A DNA stretch of 64,000 bases from Egibacter rhizosphaerae (GCF_004322855.1 NZ_CP036402.1:558001-622000), one strand, 5' to 3'. Shown: positions 37,597 through 64,000, numbered from the stretch's first letter. The notes: generated by a model not told the origin, from the sequence alone. Program-made: numbers and translations.

Positions 37597-39261
37597 CTAC
37601 TCGTAGACGATCCAGCCGTCGACGCGAGCATCGACCTCCTCGCGCTCCTCGACGTAGTCCATGACGAGCTCGCTGAGCAGGCCGCCGGCCTGCGGATCGA
37701 TGAGCATCTCGCCTTCGTTGAGCATCTCGTAGGCCTCGCCGCGGTCGAGCAGGAAGTCGAAGGCGGCGACCGTGTAAGTGCCGTCGGGGTCGACCGGCTC
37801 GCCTGCGATCTCGAGCTGCGTCACCCGGTCACCGTGCTCGGCATCGAGATCGACGAACTTCTGCGCGCCGCTCACCTGGAAGTACCGGGTGCGGTCCTCG
37901 TCGGTGTCGTGATGGACGAAGTTGTCCTCCATCAGCTGCTCGAGCTCGGCGCCGGAGAGCTCGATGAGCACCGAGTAATTGGCGAACGGCAGCATGCTCA
38001 GCACGTCGCGGCGGGTGATCGCCTCCCCGGCGGTGAAGTCGTCGCGGACGCCTCCGGTGTTCGTGAGGCCGACGTCGGCGTCACCCCAGTCGCGCAGGAC
38101 ATCCGCGAGGAACACGCGGTTGTGCTGGTCGCGCACGTCGTAGCCCTCGTCCTCCAGCTGCTCCGCGCGCTCGCTCATCGAGCCCCAGGTGTCGGCAGTG
38201 GCGCCGATCGGCTCGTCGAGCTCCTCGTCGAGCTCCGCCTCGTAAGCGTCCTGCACGTCCTGGACCGCCTCATCGGCCTCTTGCTCGGGATCGAGGTCGT
38301 GCATGGTGAAGTCGAAATCGGCCACGTCACCCTCCTCGACGTGCAGCTCGAGCTCCCCGAGGTGCTCGAACTCGTAGCCGACGTAGCTGAAGATGGTGTC
38401 GGTCTCACCGGCCTCGATGACGATGGGCTCGCGCGGCTCAGCGTGCGAGTGCCCCCCGACGAAGACGTCGATCCCGTCGACCTCCCCGGCCACCTCCTCG
38501 GCGTGGGGGTTGAGCAGGTGGTTCATTACGACCACCACGTCGGCGCCCTCGTCGTGCAGCTCGTCGATCACCGGCGGCAGCGCCTCGGCGGCGTCGATCT
38601 CGATTGCCTCGCCGTCGGTGCTGGTGAAGTCCTCCATGCCACGGGGCCCGACCCCCGTGAGACCCACGGTGACGCCGTCGAGCTCCTCGATGGCGTACTT
38701 GGCCGCGCCCTGATCGGCGGCGAAGACCTCGTCAGGGTCGTCGGCGTCGCGCACGTTGGCGCTGAGCCACTGGAACTCGCTCTCGCCGGTGAGCTCGTAG
38801 AGGTTGGCCGCGCCGTAGTCGAAGTCGTGGTTGCCGAAGGTGTTGTAGTCGAAGACCGAAGCGTTCAGCGCGTCGATCATGTGCTGACCCTCGAAGACCG
38901 CGGACTCCACCGAGGAGCCGAGATCATCGCCCGCGCCCACGAACAGCACCTGGTCGAGCGCCTCGTAGCGCTCCCGCGCGAGCCCCATGTACTGGGAGAT
39001 AGAGGCGCCGTCCTCCCCCACACGGTCATCGTGGTAATTGCCGTGGAAGTGGGTGTCGTGCAGCAGCGTGAACGAGCCGGAGGTCGGCTCCTCGTCGTCG
39101 TCCGGCGGGCCGGGGGCGTGGTCGGGCGGGCCGGGGGCGTGGTCGGGCGGGCCGGGGGCGTGGTCCGGCGGGCCGGGGGCGTGGTCGGGCGGGCCGGAGG
39201 CCGCGGGACCCGCCGCGGTGATCGCGAGTACCGCCGCGGCGACTAGGGAGAGCTTCAGCAC
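37597..39261 (-). CDS. Secreted bifunctional metallophosphatase/5'-nucleotidase
   Basis: This protein of about 554 residues has a signal sequence (LSLVAAAVLAITAAGPAAS), a repeat linker (see 39103–39197), and a calcineurin-like metallophosphatase domain with LLHDTHFHGN, GAGDDLG, FGNHDFDYG, VVVMNHLL and GGHSHAEP metal ligands. The 5'-nucleotidase C-terminal domain follows (LTNTGGVRDDF, FDFLLDRGEAYEML). It should strip phosphate from nucleotides outside the membrane. The protein is very rich in Asp and Glu, as in halophiles. The start is uncertain: GTG 39261 places the signal correctly but has no good ribosome site. Confidence 0.85.
   Translation of the reverse strand: MLKLSLVAAAVLAITAAGPAASGPPDHAPGPPDHAPGPPDHAPGPPDHAPGPPDDDEEPTSGSFTLLHDTHFHGNYHDDRVGEDGASISQYMGLARERYEALDQVLFVGAGDDLGSSVESAVFEGQHMIDALNASVFDYNTFGNHDFDYGAANLYELTGESEFQWLSANVRDADDPDEVFAADQGAAKYAIEELDGVTVGLTGVGPRGMEDFTSTDGEAIEIDAAEALPPVIDELHDEGADVVVVMNHLLNPHAEEVAGEVDGIDVFVGGHSHAEPREPIVIEAGETDTIFSYVGYEFEHLGELELHVEEGDVADFDFTMHDLDPEQEADEAVQDVQDAYEAELDEELDEPIGATADTWGSMSERAEQLEDEGYDVRDQHNRVFLADVLRDWGDADVGLTNTGGVRDDFTAGEAITRRDVLSMLPFANYSVLIELSGAELEQLMEDNFVHHDTDEDRTRYFQVSGAQKFVDLDAEHGDRVTQLEIAGEPVDPDGTYTVAAFDFLLDRGEAYEMLNEGEMLIDPQAGGLLSELVMDYVEEREEVDARVDGWIVYE
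39103..39197. repeat. 21-bp in-frame tandem repeat (PDHAPGP linker)
   Basis: Four near-perfect 21-base units code for the heptad PDHAPGP in the 5'-nucleotidase, between the signal sequence and the phosphatase domain. The units differ by single bases, and their length keeps the frame. This is a flexible, histidine-bearing extracytoplasmic spacer that could vary in copy number between strains. Confidence 0.85.
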
Positions 39262-39497
39262 GAGACGATGGGGGTGGTCGGCATGGCAGCTCCTATGGCA
39301 GCTCCTGGTGTCGCTTCCGTCGCGCTGCGTCGCCCCGTCCGCACCACGCGCCAAGGCCTGGCGGGGAACGGTGCGAGGCAATGATCCCGGCGGGGTGCGT
39401 TCCGAGGCGCGAAGAGGTTAGCCCCCGTGGGGCGAGCCGCGCGGCCCTCGCCGGGTGGGGTCACACGTGGTGATCGTACCCGGGCTCGTGGGTGGGG

Positions 39498-57847: not shown

Positions 57848-58873
57848 CTACCCGCGCGGCAGGAAGCGTTCCGTGAAGGCGCTGCGCGCCTCGCGGTCGG
57901 TGAGCCGGCAGAGGTGGTCGAGCACCCGCTGCTCGGTCACGTCGCCGTCGCGGCCCGGCAGGCTCTCAGGGTTGGTCGCCCCCTCGATGGCGAGGCTCTG
58001 CAGGCAGTGCGCGGCCCGCCCGGCCTCGGCCCGCGCCTCCGGGCGTCCGTGGACGCGTTCGTCGAGGAACGCCTCCAGCGTCCCGAGCGCGGCCTCCACC
58101 GGCGGGGTCAGCGCGATCTCGGGCCGTTCGGCGCTGGCCTGCACCGCCGACGTCACCACGGCCGCGACCCTGGTGCCGTGTCCGGCGCCGAGACCGGTGC
58201 GGACCTCGGCCGGCACGTCGTCGAGGTGGACGAGTTCGCCTCGCAGGGCCCCGGTCAGATCGTGGAGGCTGCCCGCGACCCACGTCGACAGGGCCGCCAC
58301 CTGGCCCTCGTGCGTGGCCGCATGGGAGCGGGGCCAGGTCTGGTGCAGCAGGCCGTCGCGCACCTCCCACGTGAGGTTGAGGCCCCGCCCGTCGCGAACC
58401 AAGCGTTCGACGACGCGTAGGCTCTGCTCGCCGACGTCGAACCCGGCGGTGGCGACCTCGGCGAGTGCGTGCTCGCCGGCCACCCCGAACGGCGGGGCGC
58501 CCACGGATTGGCCGAGCGCGACGGCCTCGGCGAGGTCCTCGTTGAGGCGCAGCGCCCGCGCGATCGTGCGCGCGAGCTGGCTCGTAGCGAGACTGTGCGC
58601 GAGCCGCGACCGCCACGGTGGCACGACGTCGAGGACCTGCGCGGTGGGCTCGGCCGGGACGAACGACTGGGTCGTCCCCGCGAGCCGCAGGAACACGTCC
58701 GCGTGCAGGAGCCGGTCCCGATCCTGCTGGAAGGCCGTCCGGATCGGATCCGGGTCCTCGTAGCGATCCCGACCCTTCGATTCGCCGGAGAGCGCCGCCC
58801 ACGTCGACAGGCTCGTTCGCTCGACCGCTTCCGCGCGCTCCCGAATGTCGAACGATTCGATCACACTGGGCAT
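57848..58873 (-). CDS. dGTP triphosphohydrolase-like protein lacking the HD motif
   Basis: This 341-residue protein has dGTPase family architecture: a start region RDRLLHADVFLRLAGTTQSF (usually RDRLLHSRAFRRLAGKTQVF) and RSRLAHSLATSQLARTIARA with the first histidine (His93) kept. The family's AHDLGHPPFGHAGE motif is here GQSVGAPPFGVAGE: Gln122 and Ser123 replace His-Asp, and two further histidines are Ala126 and Val131. The distal aspartate also seems lost. Metal-dependent dNTP hydrolysis is therefore unlikely. The gene still sits upstream of dnaG as dgt does in actinobacteria, so it may have a structural or regulatory role. Confidence 0.8.
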   Translation of the reverse strand: MPSVIESFDIRERAEAVERTSLSTWAALSGESKGRDRYEDPDPIRTAFQQDRDRLLHADVFLRLAGTTQSFVPAEPTAQVLDVVPPWRSRLAHSLATSQLARTIARALRLNEDLAEAVALGQSVGAPPFGVAGEHALAEVATAGFDVGEQSLRVVERLVRDGRGLNLTWEVRDGLLHQTWPRSHAATHEGQVAALSTWVAGSLHDLTGALRGELVHLDDVPAEVRTGLGAGHGTRVAAVVTSAVQASAERPEIALTPPVEAALGTLEAFLDERVHGRPEARAEAGRAAHCLQSLAIEGATNPESLPGRDGDVTEQRVLDHLCRLTDREARSAFTERFLPRG

Positions 58874-58976
58874 GGTACCAGCAGGCAACGAGGGATCGGG
58901 AGCCCCGAAGCGGCCCAGAACGGCCCGGAATCGGGCGTTCGGGACCACGATGACGACGCGAAGGGCAGGCAACCCC

Positions 58977-59372
58977 ATGGAGCAGGTCAAACCACGCGAG
59001 CTGATCGTGGCCGCCCGCGTCGCGGACGCGCTCGTCTACGCCGCCGGTGTGGCCGGTGTCGTTGCCGGCGGGGTCCTGTTCATGGAGGGCCAGCGCTGGT
59101 TCGCCGTCGTGGCCTGGGTGCTGACCTTCGTGGCCGGCGCAGCTCTGCGGCTGGCCGCCTGGGCCGCCAAGGCCCTCGCCGAGCTGCTGGAACGCACCGC
59201 CCGGATGGAGCGGGACCTCACCCACCTGCTCGTCCGCCCGCGCGAGCAGGATCCCGGGGCCGGCCCCCACGAACGCGACCTCCCCCCGGGCTTCGGCGAC
59301 TCCGGGGGGCGCCGACCCGGCGGGCGCGACGAACCCCCGGACCCGTGGAAGCGCCTCGGCGGCTGGCACTAG
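58977..59372 (+). CDS. Small two-helix membrane protein
   Basis: This 131-residue protein has two hydrophobic helices (about residues 14–32 and 36–58), an alanine-rich amphipathic segment (AAWAAKALAELLERTARMER), and a charged, proline- and glycine-rich C-terminus ending DPWKRLGGWH. No family recognised. It is divergent from the dGTPase-like gene. The last codons form the first unit of the 54-bp tandem repeat that continues past the stop. ATG 58977 chosen; ATG 58950 possible. Confidence 0.6.
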   Translation: MEQVKPRELIVAARVADALVYAAGVAGVVAGGVLFMEGQRWFAVVAWVLTFVAGAALRLAAWAAKALAELLERTARMERDLTHLLVRPREQDPGAGPHERDLPPGFGDSGGRRPGGRDEPPDPWKRLGGWH

Positions 59373-59535
59373 CGCCGACGTCCAGGCCGCCACGCACCCG
59401 TGGAAGCGCCTCGGCGGCTGGCACTAGCACCGACGCCCAGGCCGCTACGGGCCGTGGAAGCGCCTCGGCGGCTGCACCAGCGCCGACGCCCAGGCCGCGA
59501 CGACCGCGGAAGCGCCTCGGCGGCCTGCACCAGCG
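59345..59535. repeat. Tandem repeat, about 54 bp, four copies, starting inside the preceding gene
   Basis: Copies start with G(T/C)GGAAGCGCCTCGGCGGC at 59345, 59400, 59454 and 59506 (spacing 55, 54 and 52) and continue through a conserved CCGACGCCCAGGCCGC block. The first copy encodes the last residues and stop of the small membrane protein; the others are non-coding. There is no unique spacer, so this is a minisatellite-like array rather than a CRISPR. Confidence 0.85.
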
Positions 59536-59554
59536 CCGCGACACGGGCTTGCCG

Positions 59555-61435: not shown

Positions 61436-61449
61436 GTCATCATGATGAC
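61436..61449. promoter_or_regulatory. 14-bp perfect palindrome over the gntR start codon
   Basis: GTCATCA is followed directly by TGATGAC; the tandem ATG codons of gntR lie inside. TAGGTT at 61423–61428 could be a -10 element for a leaderless message. The position suits self-repression by the GntR protein that controls the microcompartment genes. Confidence 0.45.
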
Positions 61450-62236
61450 TCAGGATCCCCCCGCCGTCGGCGCCGCCATCCACCAGGGATCGGGGCTGCC
61501 ACTGCACGTCCAGCTCCGGCGGGCCGTGCTCACCGAGATCCACGAGCGGGGCCTGCGACCGGGCGACCGGCTCCCCACCGAAGGCGAGCTCGAGCAACGG
61601 TACGGCGTGTCCCGCAGCACCATCCGCCAGGCGATGGCCGACCTCGCCACCGAGGGCCACGTCACGCGCGTCCAGGGCAAGGGCACGTTCGTCGGGACCC
61701 CGAAGATCCAGCACCTGCCGGTCCTCGAGTCGTTCTCCGAGCTCCTGCGCAAGCAGGGCTACGACGCCAGCCACCGCCTCCTCGAGTCCGAGGTACGTGA
61801 GGCCCCCGGGGAGGTCGCCGAGGGCCTCGGCACCGCCGTCGGGACTCCCTGCCGGCGCTTGCAGCGGCTCTTCCTCGCCGACGGCAGCCCGGTGGGCACC
61901 GCCGAGACCTGGTTGCCGATCGCGCGCCTCGAACCCCACGACCAGCTGCTGGCGGACCCCGCCGACGGCGACTGGTCGCTCTACGCGGTGCTGCAGGACG
62001 AGCCGTTCGGCCTCCGCCTCGCCCGCGCGATCGAGACCGTGAACCCCGCGATCGCCGACGACGAGAGCGCCAGGCTGCTGCGGTGCGCGCCGGGCACCCT
62101 CCTGCTGTTGATCCACCGGGTCACCCACACCGCCGACGACGAGCCGCTCGAGTGGTCCCGACTGCGCTTCCTGGGCGGGCACTACGAGTACCGCGTCGAG
62201 CTCCACCCGAGCCGGCCGGCGGAGGGGCCCGCGTGA
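61442..62236 (+). CDS. GntR/HutC-family regulator of the microcompartment locus
   Basis: This 264-residue protein has an N-terminal winged helix (about residues 18–82; GDRLPTEGELEQRYGVSRST and VTRVQGKGTFVG) and a UTRA ligand-binding domain (about 95–255; LLESEVREAP, FLADGSPVGTAETWLPI). UTRA domains bind sugar phosphates or similar small molecules. It is the first gene of the run gntR–rpiB–deoC–BMC-T, so a pentose phosphate is the likely inducer. Its stop lies in the first copy of a 26-bp duplication. Confidence 0.88.
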   Translation: MMTQDPPAVGAAIHQGSGLPLHVQLRRAVLTEIHERGLRPGDRLPTEGELEQRYGVSRSTIRQAMADLATEGHVTRVQGKGTFVGTPKIQHLPVLESFSELLRKQGYDASHRLLESEVREAPGEVAEGLGTAVGTPCRRLQRLFLADGSPVGTAETWLPIARLEPHDQLLADPADGDWSLYAVLQDEPFGLRLARAIETVNPAIADDESARLLRCAPGTLLLLIHRVTHTADDEPLEWSRLRFLGGHYEYRVELHPSRPAEGPA

Positions 62237-62262
62237 GCCGGCCGGCGGAGGGCCCCGCGTGA
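62211..62262. repeat. 26-bp tandem duplication at the gntR–rpiB junction
   Basis: Two adjacent 26-base units (62211–62236 and 62237–62262) differ at one base. Each ends in GCGTGA: the first provides the gntR stop, the second the GTG start of rpiB. Before duplication the two genes would have overlapped by GTGA, as rpiB and deoC still do. Confidence 0.9.
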
Positions 62263-62861
62263 GCGGCGAGCCGTCACGGGAGGAGATCCGCGGCCTGGTC
62301 ACGGCGGTCGTCGACGAGGTCCTCGGCGACGCGTCGAACCCGGCCTCCCAGGAGGCCGCCGCCCGCAGCGAGGCCGACGCGCGCAGCGGCGCGGCCGGCG
62401 CGGACCGGATCGCGGTCGGCGCCGACCACGGCGGGTTCGCCCTGAAGGAGCGGCTCGCGGCCGAGCTGCGCGACCGCGGCCACGCCGTCACCGATTGCGG
62501 GACCCACAGCACGGAGTCCGCCGACTACCCCGATTTCGCCCACGCGGTCGCCCGCCACGTCGCCGACGGCAGCTGCGACGTCGGCATCGTCGTCGACGGC
62601 GCGGGCATCGGGTCCGCGATGACCGCGAACAAGGTCCCCGGGATCCGGGCCGCGACGTGCTGGGACGTCTCCAGCGCGCAGAACAGCCGCGAGCACAACC
62701 ACGCCAACGTGCTCTCCCTCGGGGCGGGGCTGCTCGGCGAGAACCTCGCCCTGCAGGTCGTGTACGCGTGGCTGGCCACCCCGTGGGGAGGCGAGCGGCA
62801 CGCGCGGCGCGTGAACAAGATCACCGAGTACGAGGGGCGCTACCTGAGGGGGCAGCGGTGA
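62259..62861 (+). CDS. rpiB: Ribose-5-phosphate isomerase B-like, with N-terminal encapsulation peptide
   Basis: This 200-residue protein has about 48 extra residues at the N-terminus, including the amphipathic helix [16 protein letters not shown], then the RpiB fold: [41 protein letters not shown] and [14 protein letters not shown]. The phosphate- and ring-opening histidines are kept. In the active-site loop the usual Cys-Gly-Thr-Gly is Asp113-Gly-Ala-Gly ([11 protein letters not shown]), so the catalytic cysteine is replaced. It should interconvert ribose 5-phosphate and ribulose 5-phosphate, or a related sugar phosphate, inside the shell. Confidence 0.85.
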
Positions 62862-63742
62862 GAAGCGACCGCGACAGGCTCGTCGAGACGGTGACCGAGG
62901 AGGTCGTGCGGGCGCTCGAGGCCCGCCACGGGTCGAGCACCGATCAGGCCGGTGGAACCGGATGCCCGAACTGCACCGGGACGCGGGCCACCGACCCGGC
63001 CGAGAAGGTCCGCGAGATCGTCGACACCGGAGCCGACCGCATCGCCCACAACGGGCACGGACACGACGTGCCCGACGACCTCGCCTCCTACATCGACCAC
63101 ACGCTGCTGCGCGCCGACGTGACCGCCGACGACGTCGATCAGCTCTGCGACGAAGCGCTGCGCTTCTCGTTCAAGGCCGTCTGCGTGAACCCCACCTGGG
63201 TGCGCCGCTGCGCGCAGCTGCTGCGCGGCACCGACGTCGAGGTCGCCTCCGTCGTCGGCTTCCCGCTCGGGGCGACGACGCGACAGACCAAGGCCCTCGA
63301 GGCGCGCCGAGCACTGCGCGACGGCGCGACCGAGATCGACATGGTCGTCAACGTCGGGGCGCTCAAGAGCGGCCATCACGACGACGTCCGCGCCGACATC
63401 GAGGGCGTCGCCGACGCGTGCCACGAGACCCGCGGACGGCTGAAGGTGATCATCGAGACCGCCTACCTCACCGACGAGGAGAAGGTGGTCGCCAGCCACC
63501 TCGCCAAGCAGGCGCGCGCCGACTTCGTCAAGACCTCCACCGGCTTCGGACCCGGAGGGGCGACGGCCTACGACGTGCTGCTCATCCGCGAGACCGTCGG
63601 CGAGCACATGGAACTCAAGGCGTCGGGGGGCATCCGCACCGAGGAGGACATCCGCACGATGCTCGCCGCCGGCGCGACGCGCATCGGAGCGTCCGCGGGC
63701 GTGCAGATCATGACCGGCGGCGACGGCGACGGCGGGTACTGA
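62858..63742 (+). CDS. deoC: Deoxyribose-phosphate aldolase with N-terminal encapsulation peptide and CxxC linker
   Basis: This 294-residue protein starts at GTG 62858, overlapping the rpiB stop (GTGA) with GAGGGGG upstream. Residues 5–23 form an amphipathic helix ([18 protein letters not shown]). A linker with Cys36-Pro-Asn-Cys39 and [16 protein letters not shown] leads to the DERA barrel (from about residue 70): [23 protein letters not shown] (Asp161), [11 protein letters not shown] with Schiff-base Lys225, and LKASGGIRT with Lys254. It splits 2-deoxyribose 5-phosphate into glyceraldehyde 3-phosphate and acetaldehyde; acetaldehyde is a reason for encapsulation. Confidence 0.92.
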
Positions 63743-63786
63743 ACCCGGCCAATGGGAGGCGCGATGAGCAGGCCGAAGGAGAACCG

Positions 63787-64000
63787 ATGAGCAGTGGTGA
63801 TGTCGAGCTCAGGGCGTACTGCTTCCTGGACAACCTCCAGCCGCAGTACGCCGCGTTCCTGGGGACGGTGGCGCCCGGCTTCCTGCCCGTCGCCGGCGAC
63901 GCCTCCCTCTTCATCGAGGTGGCCCCGGGCATCGAGATCAACCGGCTGACCGACGTCGCGGTGAAGTCCACCACGGTCAAGCCCGGGATGCAGATCGTCG
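63787..64000 (+). CDS. BMC-T microcompartment shell protein, partial at window edge
   Basis: Only 71 residues fall inside the window. [20 protein letters not shown] and the following [20 protein letters not shown] then KPGMQIV match the first BMC domain of trimeric tandem-domain shell proteins found in actinobacterial microcompartment loci. AAGGAGA precedes ATG 63787; an eight-codon frame (ATG 63763) ends on this start (ATGA) and is probably incidental. The rest of the shell operon should lie just beyond the edge. Confidence 0.88.

What the first reader, a model, noticed from the sequence alone, without database searches (positions are those of the whole stretch)
61442..64000. Start of a sugar-phosphate-utilising (SPU-type) microcompartment locus
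Seen: a GntR/UTRA regulator, RpiB, DeoC and a BMC-T shell protein in one coupled run, with both enzymes carrying N-terminal helical extensions. Known: microcompartment loci classed as SPU pair DeoC and RpiB-type enzymes with BMC shell proteins. Inference: the organelle processes deoxyribose or ribose phosphates, perhaps from DNA or nucleosides, and contains acetaldehyde. A secreted 5'-nucleotidase elsewhere in the window could feed nucleosides to it.
Basis: partly seen in the sequence, partly recalled or inferred. Interest (0 to 1): 0.85.

Follow-up and report, generated by a model that had tools for sequence, protein, structure and literature searches.

The report
Complete sugar-phosphate (SPU) microcompartment locus
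The window ends inside a complete ten-gene locus for a protein-shelled bacterial organelle of the known SPU type, predicted to break down deoxyribose phosphate; unexpectedly, its RpiB-like enzyme has lost the catalytic cysteine of true RpiB, so one of the two enzymes that define this organelle type may not do what its name says.

Summary
To the right lie BMC-H, three BMC-P, a PduT-like BMC-T and an acylating aldehyde dehydrogenase: one ten-gene run, GntR-RpiB-DeoC-BMC-T(CcmP-like)-BMC-H-BMC-P-AldDH-BMC-T-BMC-P-BMC-P. The same order from RpiB onward recurs in most of about 87 related loci, from Actinobacteriota to Chloroflexota, Gemmatimonadota, Acidobacteriota and Planctomycetota. It is a member of the known SPU type, probably the CcmP-bearing SPU2/SPU3 kind. 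DeoC keeps all catalytic residues and is the genome's only DeoC. Nucleoside phosphorylase is present; DeoB and any phosphotransacetylase (PduL or Pta) are not. New here, as far as the papers I could search show: the encapsulated "RpiB" is a separate clade with Asp in place of the catalytic Cys (79/79), Ala in place of the proton-relay Thr/Ser (78/79) and mostly Gly in place of a conserved Arg, while housekeeping RpiBs beside the same loci keep all three. The motif is a perfect marker of SPU loci in 397 actinobacterial genomes. As deoxyribose-5-phosphate has no C2 hydroxyl, ordinary isomerase chemistry cannot act on it; the enzyme may open its ring for DeoC, or use another substrate.

The parts
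61436..61449 (.). Perfect 14-bp palindrome GTCATCATGATGAC over the GntR start codon; candidate operator of the locus regulator
   Evidence: Only exact match in the 4.64-Mb genome. The same palindrome with 0-2 mismatches lies at the GntR start in L042, L045, L048, L049 and L097; 9 hits in 1.2 Mb of related loci, 7 of them at GntR starts (one locus counted twice).
61442..62236 (+). GntR/UTRA (HutC-like) transcriptional regulator
   Evidence: PF00392, PF07702; conserved at this place in Nitriliruptoria and in three other actinobacterial loci (L076, L084, L097), absent from most others.
62209..62264 (+). 26-bp tandem duplication (2.2 copies) of the GntR stop / RpiB start junction
   Evidence: TRF score 105.
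62259..62861 (+). RpiB-like SPU enzyme with N-terminal helix (residues about 7-26) and linker; active-site motif DGAGIG in place of CGTGIG
   Evidence: PF02502, TIGR01120; AlphaFold pLDDT 88.9, core 0.7 A rmsd to 3he8; D113 79/79, A115 78/79, G157 72/79 against C/S/R in housekeeping RpiBs.
62858..63742 (+). DeoC deoxyribose-phosphate aldolase with N-terminal extension (about 72 aa); catalytic D161, K225, K254
   Evidence: TIGR00126 274 bits; catalytic residues 83/83 in relatives; the genome's only other PF01791 protein looks like a class I fructose-bisphosphate aldolase (L069 read).
63787..64000 (+). CcmP-like gated BMC-T (BMC-Tdp) shell gene, cut by the window end (ends at window-equivalent 64422). 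Beyond the window, in window-equivalent coordinates: BMC-H 64497-64808, BMC-P 64876-65184, AldDH 65181-66641, PduT-like BMC-T 66646-67230, BMC-P 67328-67612, BMC-P 67683-67967
   Evidence: PDB CcmP 4ht5/5lsr 8.5e-86; E72-R73 86/86 in relatives; downstream genes PF00936, PF03319, PF00171.

Best explanation
This is a complete SPU-type metabolosome locus. Shown by sequence: a full shell set (one BMC-H, one CcmP-like gated BMC-T, one PduT-like BMC-T, three BMC-P); three enzymes with N-terminal extensions of the encapsulation-peptide kind (RpiB-like, DeoC, CoA-acylating AldDH); and a GntR/UTRA regulator with a palindrome over its own start codon. Inferred: the regulator represses the operon until a sugar-phosphate effector binds. 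2-deoxyribose-5-phosphate, made from deoxynucleosides by the pyrimidine-nucleoside phosphorylase and an unidentified pentomutase, enters through the gated CcmP-like trimer. [quoted passage not shown] AldDH turns acetaldehyde plus CoA and NAD+ into acetyl-CoA and NADH. With no PduL, no Pta and no alcohol dehydrogenase gene in the locus, acetyl-CoA and cofactors must exchange with the cytosol rather than be recycled inside. The RpiB-like protein belongs to an SPU-only clade in which the isomerase base and proton relay are replaced (Cys to Asp, Thr/Ser to Ala). It probably handles the same sugar phosphate as DeoC but not by ordinary R5P-Ru5P isomerisation. My preferred reading is opening of the furanose ring (or a carboxylate-based isomerisation) ahead of DeoC.
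For: Genome context and families. Same order from RpiB on in most of about 87 loci. DeoC K225/D161/K254 83/83. BMC-Tdp gate residues E72/R73 86/86, closest solved relative CcmP. AldDH catalytic Cys287 in 77/77 readable rows, family PRK15398 (EutE type) 592 bits. Extensions on all three enzymes, absent from the genome's other RpiB. PyNP present; DeoB, Pta and PduL absent. RpiB active-site changes in a clade with 100/96 support and strict association with SPU loci: 10 of 11 SPU-type genomes, 0 of 386 others. Marinimicrobia carry aldolase and isomerase as one fusion protein (PMC4207490), which fits consecutive steps on one substrate.
Against: No SPU organelle has been assayed in any paper I found, and nothing here is experimental. 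No deoxyribose kinase, transporter or DeoB is linked to the locus. Single extensions do not stand out by hydrophobic moment; only the set of relatives is above shuffles. The role of the RpiB-like enzyme is inferred from residues alone; Asp could still act as a base, as Glu75 does in M. tuberculosis RpiB.
Confidence: 0.72

Rival explanations
1. Same organelle, but the substrate is ribose-5-phosphate or another pentose phosphate: the RpiB-like enzyme isomerises it with Asp113 as base, and DeoC cleaves a non-deoxy sugar phosphate to glycolaldehyde plus glyceraldehyde-3-phosphate; AldDH makes glycolyl-CoA.
For: RpiB fold is intact (0.7 A to 3he8) and the protein passes the NCBIfam rpiB cut-off; the ring-opening His and phosphate-binding Arg are kept; a carboxylate base works in the family (Glu75 in M. 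tuberculosis, PMC4783025).
Against: DeoC passes the deoxyribose-phosphate aldolase equivalog with all catalytic residues; the Thr/Ser proton relay is lost too; an RpiB of the M. tuberculosis type is already encoded elsewhere.
Confidence: 0.17
2. The RpiB-like protein is a structural or regulatory passenger with no catalytic role, retained for core assembly with DeoC; the organelle is otherwise a DeoC-AldDH compartment.
For: Loss of the catalytic Cys and Thr; L145 is a related locus in which no RpiB or DeoC match was found.
Against: D113, S119, H146, R180 and R184 are invariant in 79 sequences from several phyla, which looks like selection on an active site, not decay.
Confidence: 0.07
3. The locus is not a working organelle in this genome (remnant or unexpressed).
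For: Tandem duplications loosen gene junctions in this genome only; no sigma-70-type promoter match.
Against: All ten frames are open, catalytic and gate residues are intact, and the regulator site is intact.
Confidence: 0.04

Closest known systems
SPU (sugar phosphate utilisation) microcompartments, Axen 2014 and Sutter 2021 (PMC4207490, PMC8217296)
   Same: DeoC-type pfam01791 aldolase, RpiB-type pfam02502 enzyme, pfam00171 AldDH, full BMC-H/P/T shell; CcmP-like BMC-Tdp as described for SPU2 and SPU3; three BMC-P.
   Different: No PduL, PduS or TIM gene in the run. The papers call the second enzyme RpiB type; its active site differs from RpiB in all 79 sequences examined here.
Ribose-5-phosphate isomerase B (RpiB), e.g. 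C. thermocellum 3he8 and E. coli 1nn4
   Same: Fold (TM 0.97 to 3he8), Asp-His, Tyr, His99 and Arg equivalents.
   Different: Cys66 to Asp, Thr68 to Ala, the GxRVVG Arg to Gly; N-terminal helix plus linker of about 48 aa.
HO microcompartment of Haliangium ochraceum
   Same: Similar BMC-Tdp type and BMC-P triplet (PMC8217296); PDB shell relatives 5v74, 6mzx, 5dih.
   Different: In HO loci the pfam01791 enzyme, where present, is described as lying at another genomic place; here DeoC and RpiB lead the operon.
Beta-carboxysome CcmP
   Same: BMC-T aligned over residues 5-208 without gaps, E 8.5e-86, with the gate residues.
   Different: Falls just short of the CcmP equivalog cut-off (330 against 340 bits); no RuBisCO in the run.

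Membership tests
SPU microcompartment | DeoC-type pfam01791 aldolase in the locus | tested here: met
   PF01791 3.7e-22, TIGR00126 274 bits; catalytic residues intact.
SPU microcompartment | RpiB-type pfam02502 enzyme in the locus | tested here: met
   PF02502 5e-54, TIGR01120 155.5 bits. Family met; catalytic Cys not present.
SPU microcompartment | pfam00171 AldDH with the shell genes, on the acetaldehyde (EUT1-like) branch | tested here: inconclusive
   PF00171 1.6e-36; PRK15398 (EutE type) 592 bits; nearest PDB entries include BMC-type AldDHs. Branch placement by tree not done.
SPU microcompartment | BMC-H, BMC-P and BMC-T shell genes | tested here: met
   One BMC-H, two BMC-T, three BMC-P.
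SPU microcompartment | Encapsulation peptides on cargo enzymes | tested here: inconclusive
   Conserved N-terminal extension on RpiB, DeoC and AldDH, modelled as a helix plus linker for RpiB; amphipathicity above shuffles only as a set.
SPU subtype (SPU1-7) | Subtype-specific shell composition and gene order | not testable with these tools
   Supplementary Data 2 of PMC8217296 could not be read; the CcmP-like BMC-Tdp points to SPU2 or SPU3 by the main text.
SPU microcompartment | Assembled polyhedral bodies that process dR5P | not testable with these tools
   Needs expression and microscopy.
Complete-core metabolosome (AldDH + PTAC + AlcDH) | PduL or Pta phosphotransacylase | tested here: not met
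   No PF06130 and no PF01515 in the genome.
Complete-core metabolosome (AldDH + PTAC + AlcDH) | Alcohol dehydrogenase in the locus | tested here: not met
   No such gene between GntR and the third BMC-P. Not searched genome-wide.
RpiB, ribose-5-phosphate isomerase B | Cys66 (or Glu75 in the M. tuberculosis type) as base | tested here: not met
   Asp at the Cys position 79/79, Ser at the Glu75 position 79/79; residue roles from PMC4783025.
RpiB, ribose-5-phosphate isomerase B | R5P isomerase activity | not testable with these tools
   Needs enzyme assay.

The most novel reading that the evidence does not exclude
The RpiB-like enzyme of SPU organelles is not a ribose-5-phosphate isomerase. It forms an SPU-only clade with Asp and Ala in place of the isomerase base and proton relay, and opens the ring of 2-deoxyribose-5-phosphate (or does another carboxylate-based step) to feed the open-chain aldehyde to DeoC.
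Probability: 0.25. Interest if true: 0.72.

Novelty: new member of a known kind. Interest (0 to 1): 0.5.

Why it matters
[quoted passage not shown] Here one of the two carries conserved active-site substitutions that make the assumed reaction doubtful, and the assumed substrate, deoxyribose-5-phosphate, cannot be isomerised at C2 at all. That turns the open question 'what does the SPU organelle do' into a few enzyme assays. The DGAGIG motif also gives a sharp one-gene marker for SPU loci, and the window genome, a single-contig assembly, offers a locus with its own regulator and a candidate operator.

Tried and rejected
A four-Cys motif in the DeoC linker (CxxCxxxCxxxC in near relatives) looked like a metal site, but the linker Cys number varies from 0 to 8 among 83 DeoCs, so it is not a defining feature. 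A PduT-type iron-sulphur cluster in the second BMC-T was rejected: the position aligned with the PduT pore motif is mostly His or Gln, and Cys is not among its common residues. A tie to erythritol-type isomerases (EryI) was tested: rhizobial RpiB proteins beside a triose-phosphate isomerase keep CGTG. A regulon search with the palindrome found no second exact site; the one single-mismatch site shows no evident nucleoside-related gene. Clustering of flanking genes among the loci was noisy and showed no recognisable nucleoside or deoxyribose gene. Hydrophobic-moment tests of single extensions gave nothing.

Full report
What was checked. The nearest named relative with the same locus is the MAG 'Nitriliruptorales bacterium CSSed162cmA_398R1' (L096, the same contig as L031/G003, which is in the same family as the window genome). 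The window genome is therefore a Nitriliruptoria-related actinobacterium; its own name was not available.

Anatomy. In window-equivalent coordinates, all + strand: GntR/UTRA 61442-62236; RpiB-like 62259-62861; DeoC 62858-63742; CcmP-like BMC-T 63787-64422; BMC-H 64497-64808; BMC-P 64876-65184; AldDH 65181-66641; PduT-like BMC-T 66646-67230; BMC-P 67328-67612; BMC-P 67683-67967. Family hits are clear for all but the CcmP-like protein, which Pfam scores just under its BMC cut-off (23.6 against 24.5 bits) but which matches CcmP over residues 5-208 (8.5e-86; 330 bits). There are no other PF00936 genes in the genome. The next gene downstream is a putative membrane protein, and no alcohol dehydrogenase, PduL, PduS or TIM gene lies in the run.

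Relatives. In 121 related genomes, BMC genes occur in 31. The full ten-gene order recurs in G003, G043, G048, G055 and G057, and without GntR in G108 and G119; other genomes show parts cut by contig ends. A scan of 84,980 species genomes with the BMC-T alignment gave 80 further loci, most with the same order from RpiB on, titled Acidimicrobiia, Thermoleophilia, Nitriliruptorales, Chloroflexi, Gemmatimonadota, Acidobacteria, Phycisphaerae and others. Two of them, L086 and L096, are the same contigs as L049 and L031. This is an established and widespread locus type, not a curiosity of this genome.

Comparison with the literature. SPU loci were named in 2014 from a few single-cell genomes with a DeoC-like aldolase, an RpiB-like isomerase and AldDH (PMC4207490) and grew from eight to more than 280 members in 26 phyla and seven subtypes, all sharing pfam01791 and pfam02502 (PMC8217296). 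This locus meets those features. By the main text, CcmP-like BMC-Tdp proteins occur in HO, MIC3, SPU2 and SPU3 loci, so SPU2 or SPU3 is likely here; the supplementary table that would settle it could not be read.

DeoC and AldDH. The Schiff-base lysine K225, D161 and K254 of DeoC are present in 83 of 83 relatives (roles of these residues from general knowledge of DeoC). Apart from it the genome has one PF01791 protein, at C1:2502207, whose sequence looks like a class I fructose-bisphosphate aldolase, so the encapsulated DeoC is the only DeoC. AldDH is of the acylating EutE/PduP kind, with catalytic Cys287 present in all readable rows. There is a pyrimidine-nucleoside phosphorylase (C1:4324276, 472 bits against a cut-off of 409) but no DeoB, no Pta and no PduL. 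How dR1P becomes dR5P here (a PGM/PMM-family mutase is my guess) and how CoA is recycled are open. The core is incomplete in the sense used by Axen and colleagues.

The RpiB-like enzyme. It passes the NCBIfam rpiB equivalog cut-off, and its model lies 0.7 A from C. thermocellum RpiB 3he8. Yet at the position of the catalytic base Cys66 it has Asp in 79 of 79 SPU sequences; at the proton-relay Thr/Ser it has Ala in 78; at the Arg of the GxRVVG motif it has Gly in 72. The 12 housekeeping RpiBs encoded near the same loci have Cys, Ser and Arg in 12 of 12; the window genome's second RpiB is of the M. tuberculosis type with Glu75. The alternative Glu position is Ser in 79 of 79 SPU sequences. Asp-His, Tyr, the His99 equivalent and two Arg are kept. 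In Leishmania RpiB, C69S abolishes R5P isomerisation, and Cys66 or Glu75 are the bases described there for other species (PMC4783025). The SPU sequences form one clade (support 100/96; the tree includes the motif columns). A DNA pattern for DGAGIGS...ANK occurs in 10 of 397 genomes sampled across the phylum. All ten carry the SPU-type BMC-T. The one SPU-type genome without the pattern (G222) has its BMC-T 0.9 kb from a contig end, so its RpiB is probably cut off. None of the 386 others has it, including seven with other BMC-Tdp shells (one-sided Fisher 4.6e-19, not corrected for relatedness). I found no mention of this in the papers searched, but only open-licence papers are held.

Mechanism. 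From chemistry, 2-deoxyribose-5-phosphate has no hydroxyl at C2 and cannot be converted to a ketose by an RpiB-type enediol mechanism. DeoC needs the open-chain aldehyde. An RpiB-like enzyme that keeps sugar-phosphate binding and the ring-opening histidine, but has lost the isomerase base and relay, would suit ring opening ahead of DeoC; the aldolase-isomerase fusion in Marinimicrobia (PMC4207490) fits consecutive action. This is a hypothesis (0.25). The rival, that Asp simply replaces Cys as the base on ribose-5-phosphate or a relative, remains open.

Regulation. GTCATCATGATGAC, a perfect palindrome, spans the GntR start codon (61436-61449). It is the only exact copy in the genome and recurs with 0-2 mismatches at the GntR start of five of the eight other GntR-bearing loci. 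By eye, TTGAC-like boxes precede it at a promoter-like distance in several loci; the consensus scanner found none. Autoregulation is inferred.

Verdict.

Noticed in passing
window 62209-62264; L005 9218-9315, 9600-9688, 9958-10034 (window-equivalent 67218-67315, 67600-67688, 67958-68034): Tandem repeats of 18-27 bp sit at three gene junctions of the locus and just after its last gene (GntR/RpiB, BMC-T/BMC-P, BMC-P/BMC-P, after the last BMC-P), the units duplicating stop, ribosome-binding and start regions. Relatives have overlapping or near-overlapping junctions at the same places. Only three other arrays of that score lie in the 64-kb window.
   Followed up: partly
L162 (G055:C205) and L048 (G055:C250): One relative carries two different SPU RpiB-DeoC pairs on separate contigs; a second locus or a strain mixture in the MAG.
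   Followed up: no
L030, L032, L035, L041, L043, L050 (G001, G009, G018, G039, G044, G061): Nitriliruptoria relatives without the SPU locus often carry another BMC locus with a BMC-Tdp; in L041 it includes EutB/EutC/EutH-like genes, resembling EUT3 (gene names by eye).
   Followed up: partly
DeoC linker, window about 62965-62976; relatives: Near relatives have a CxxCxxxCxxxC stretch between the N-terminal helix and the aldolase domain; here only CPNC remains, and the number of Cys varies from 0 to 8 across phyla.
   Followed up: yes
BMC-Ts residue 38 (L005 8646-9227): The position aligned with the PduT pore motif is His (51) or Gln (18) in most SPU relatives, so a three-His or three-Gln pore site is possible.
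   Followed up: partly
window 37597-39381 (-): Secreted-looking 5'-nucleotidase (PF02872, PF00149) with a 21-bp repeat array of five copies inside the gene (39096-39201).
   Followed up: no
window 59340-59538: A 55-bp repeat array of 3.7 copies overlapping the end of the small ORF 58845-59372 and continuing past it.
   Followed up: no
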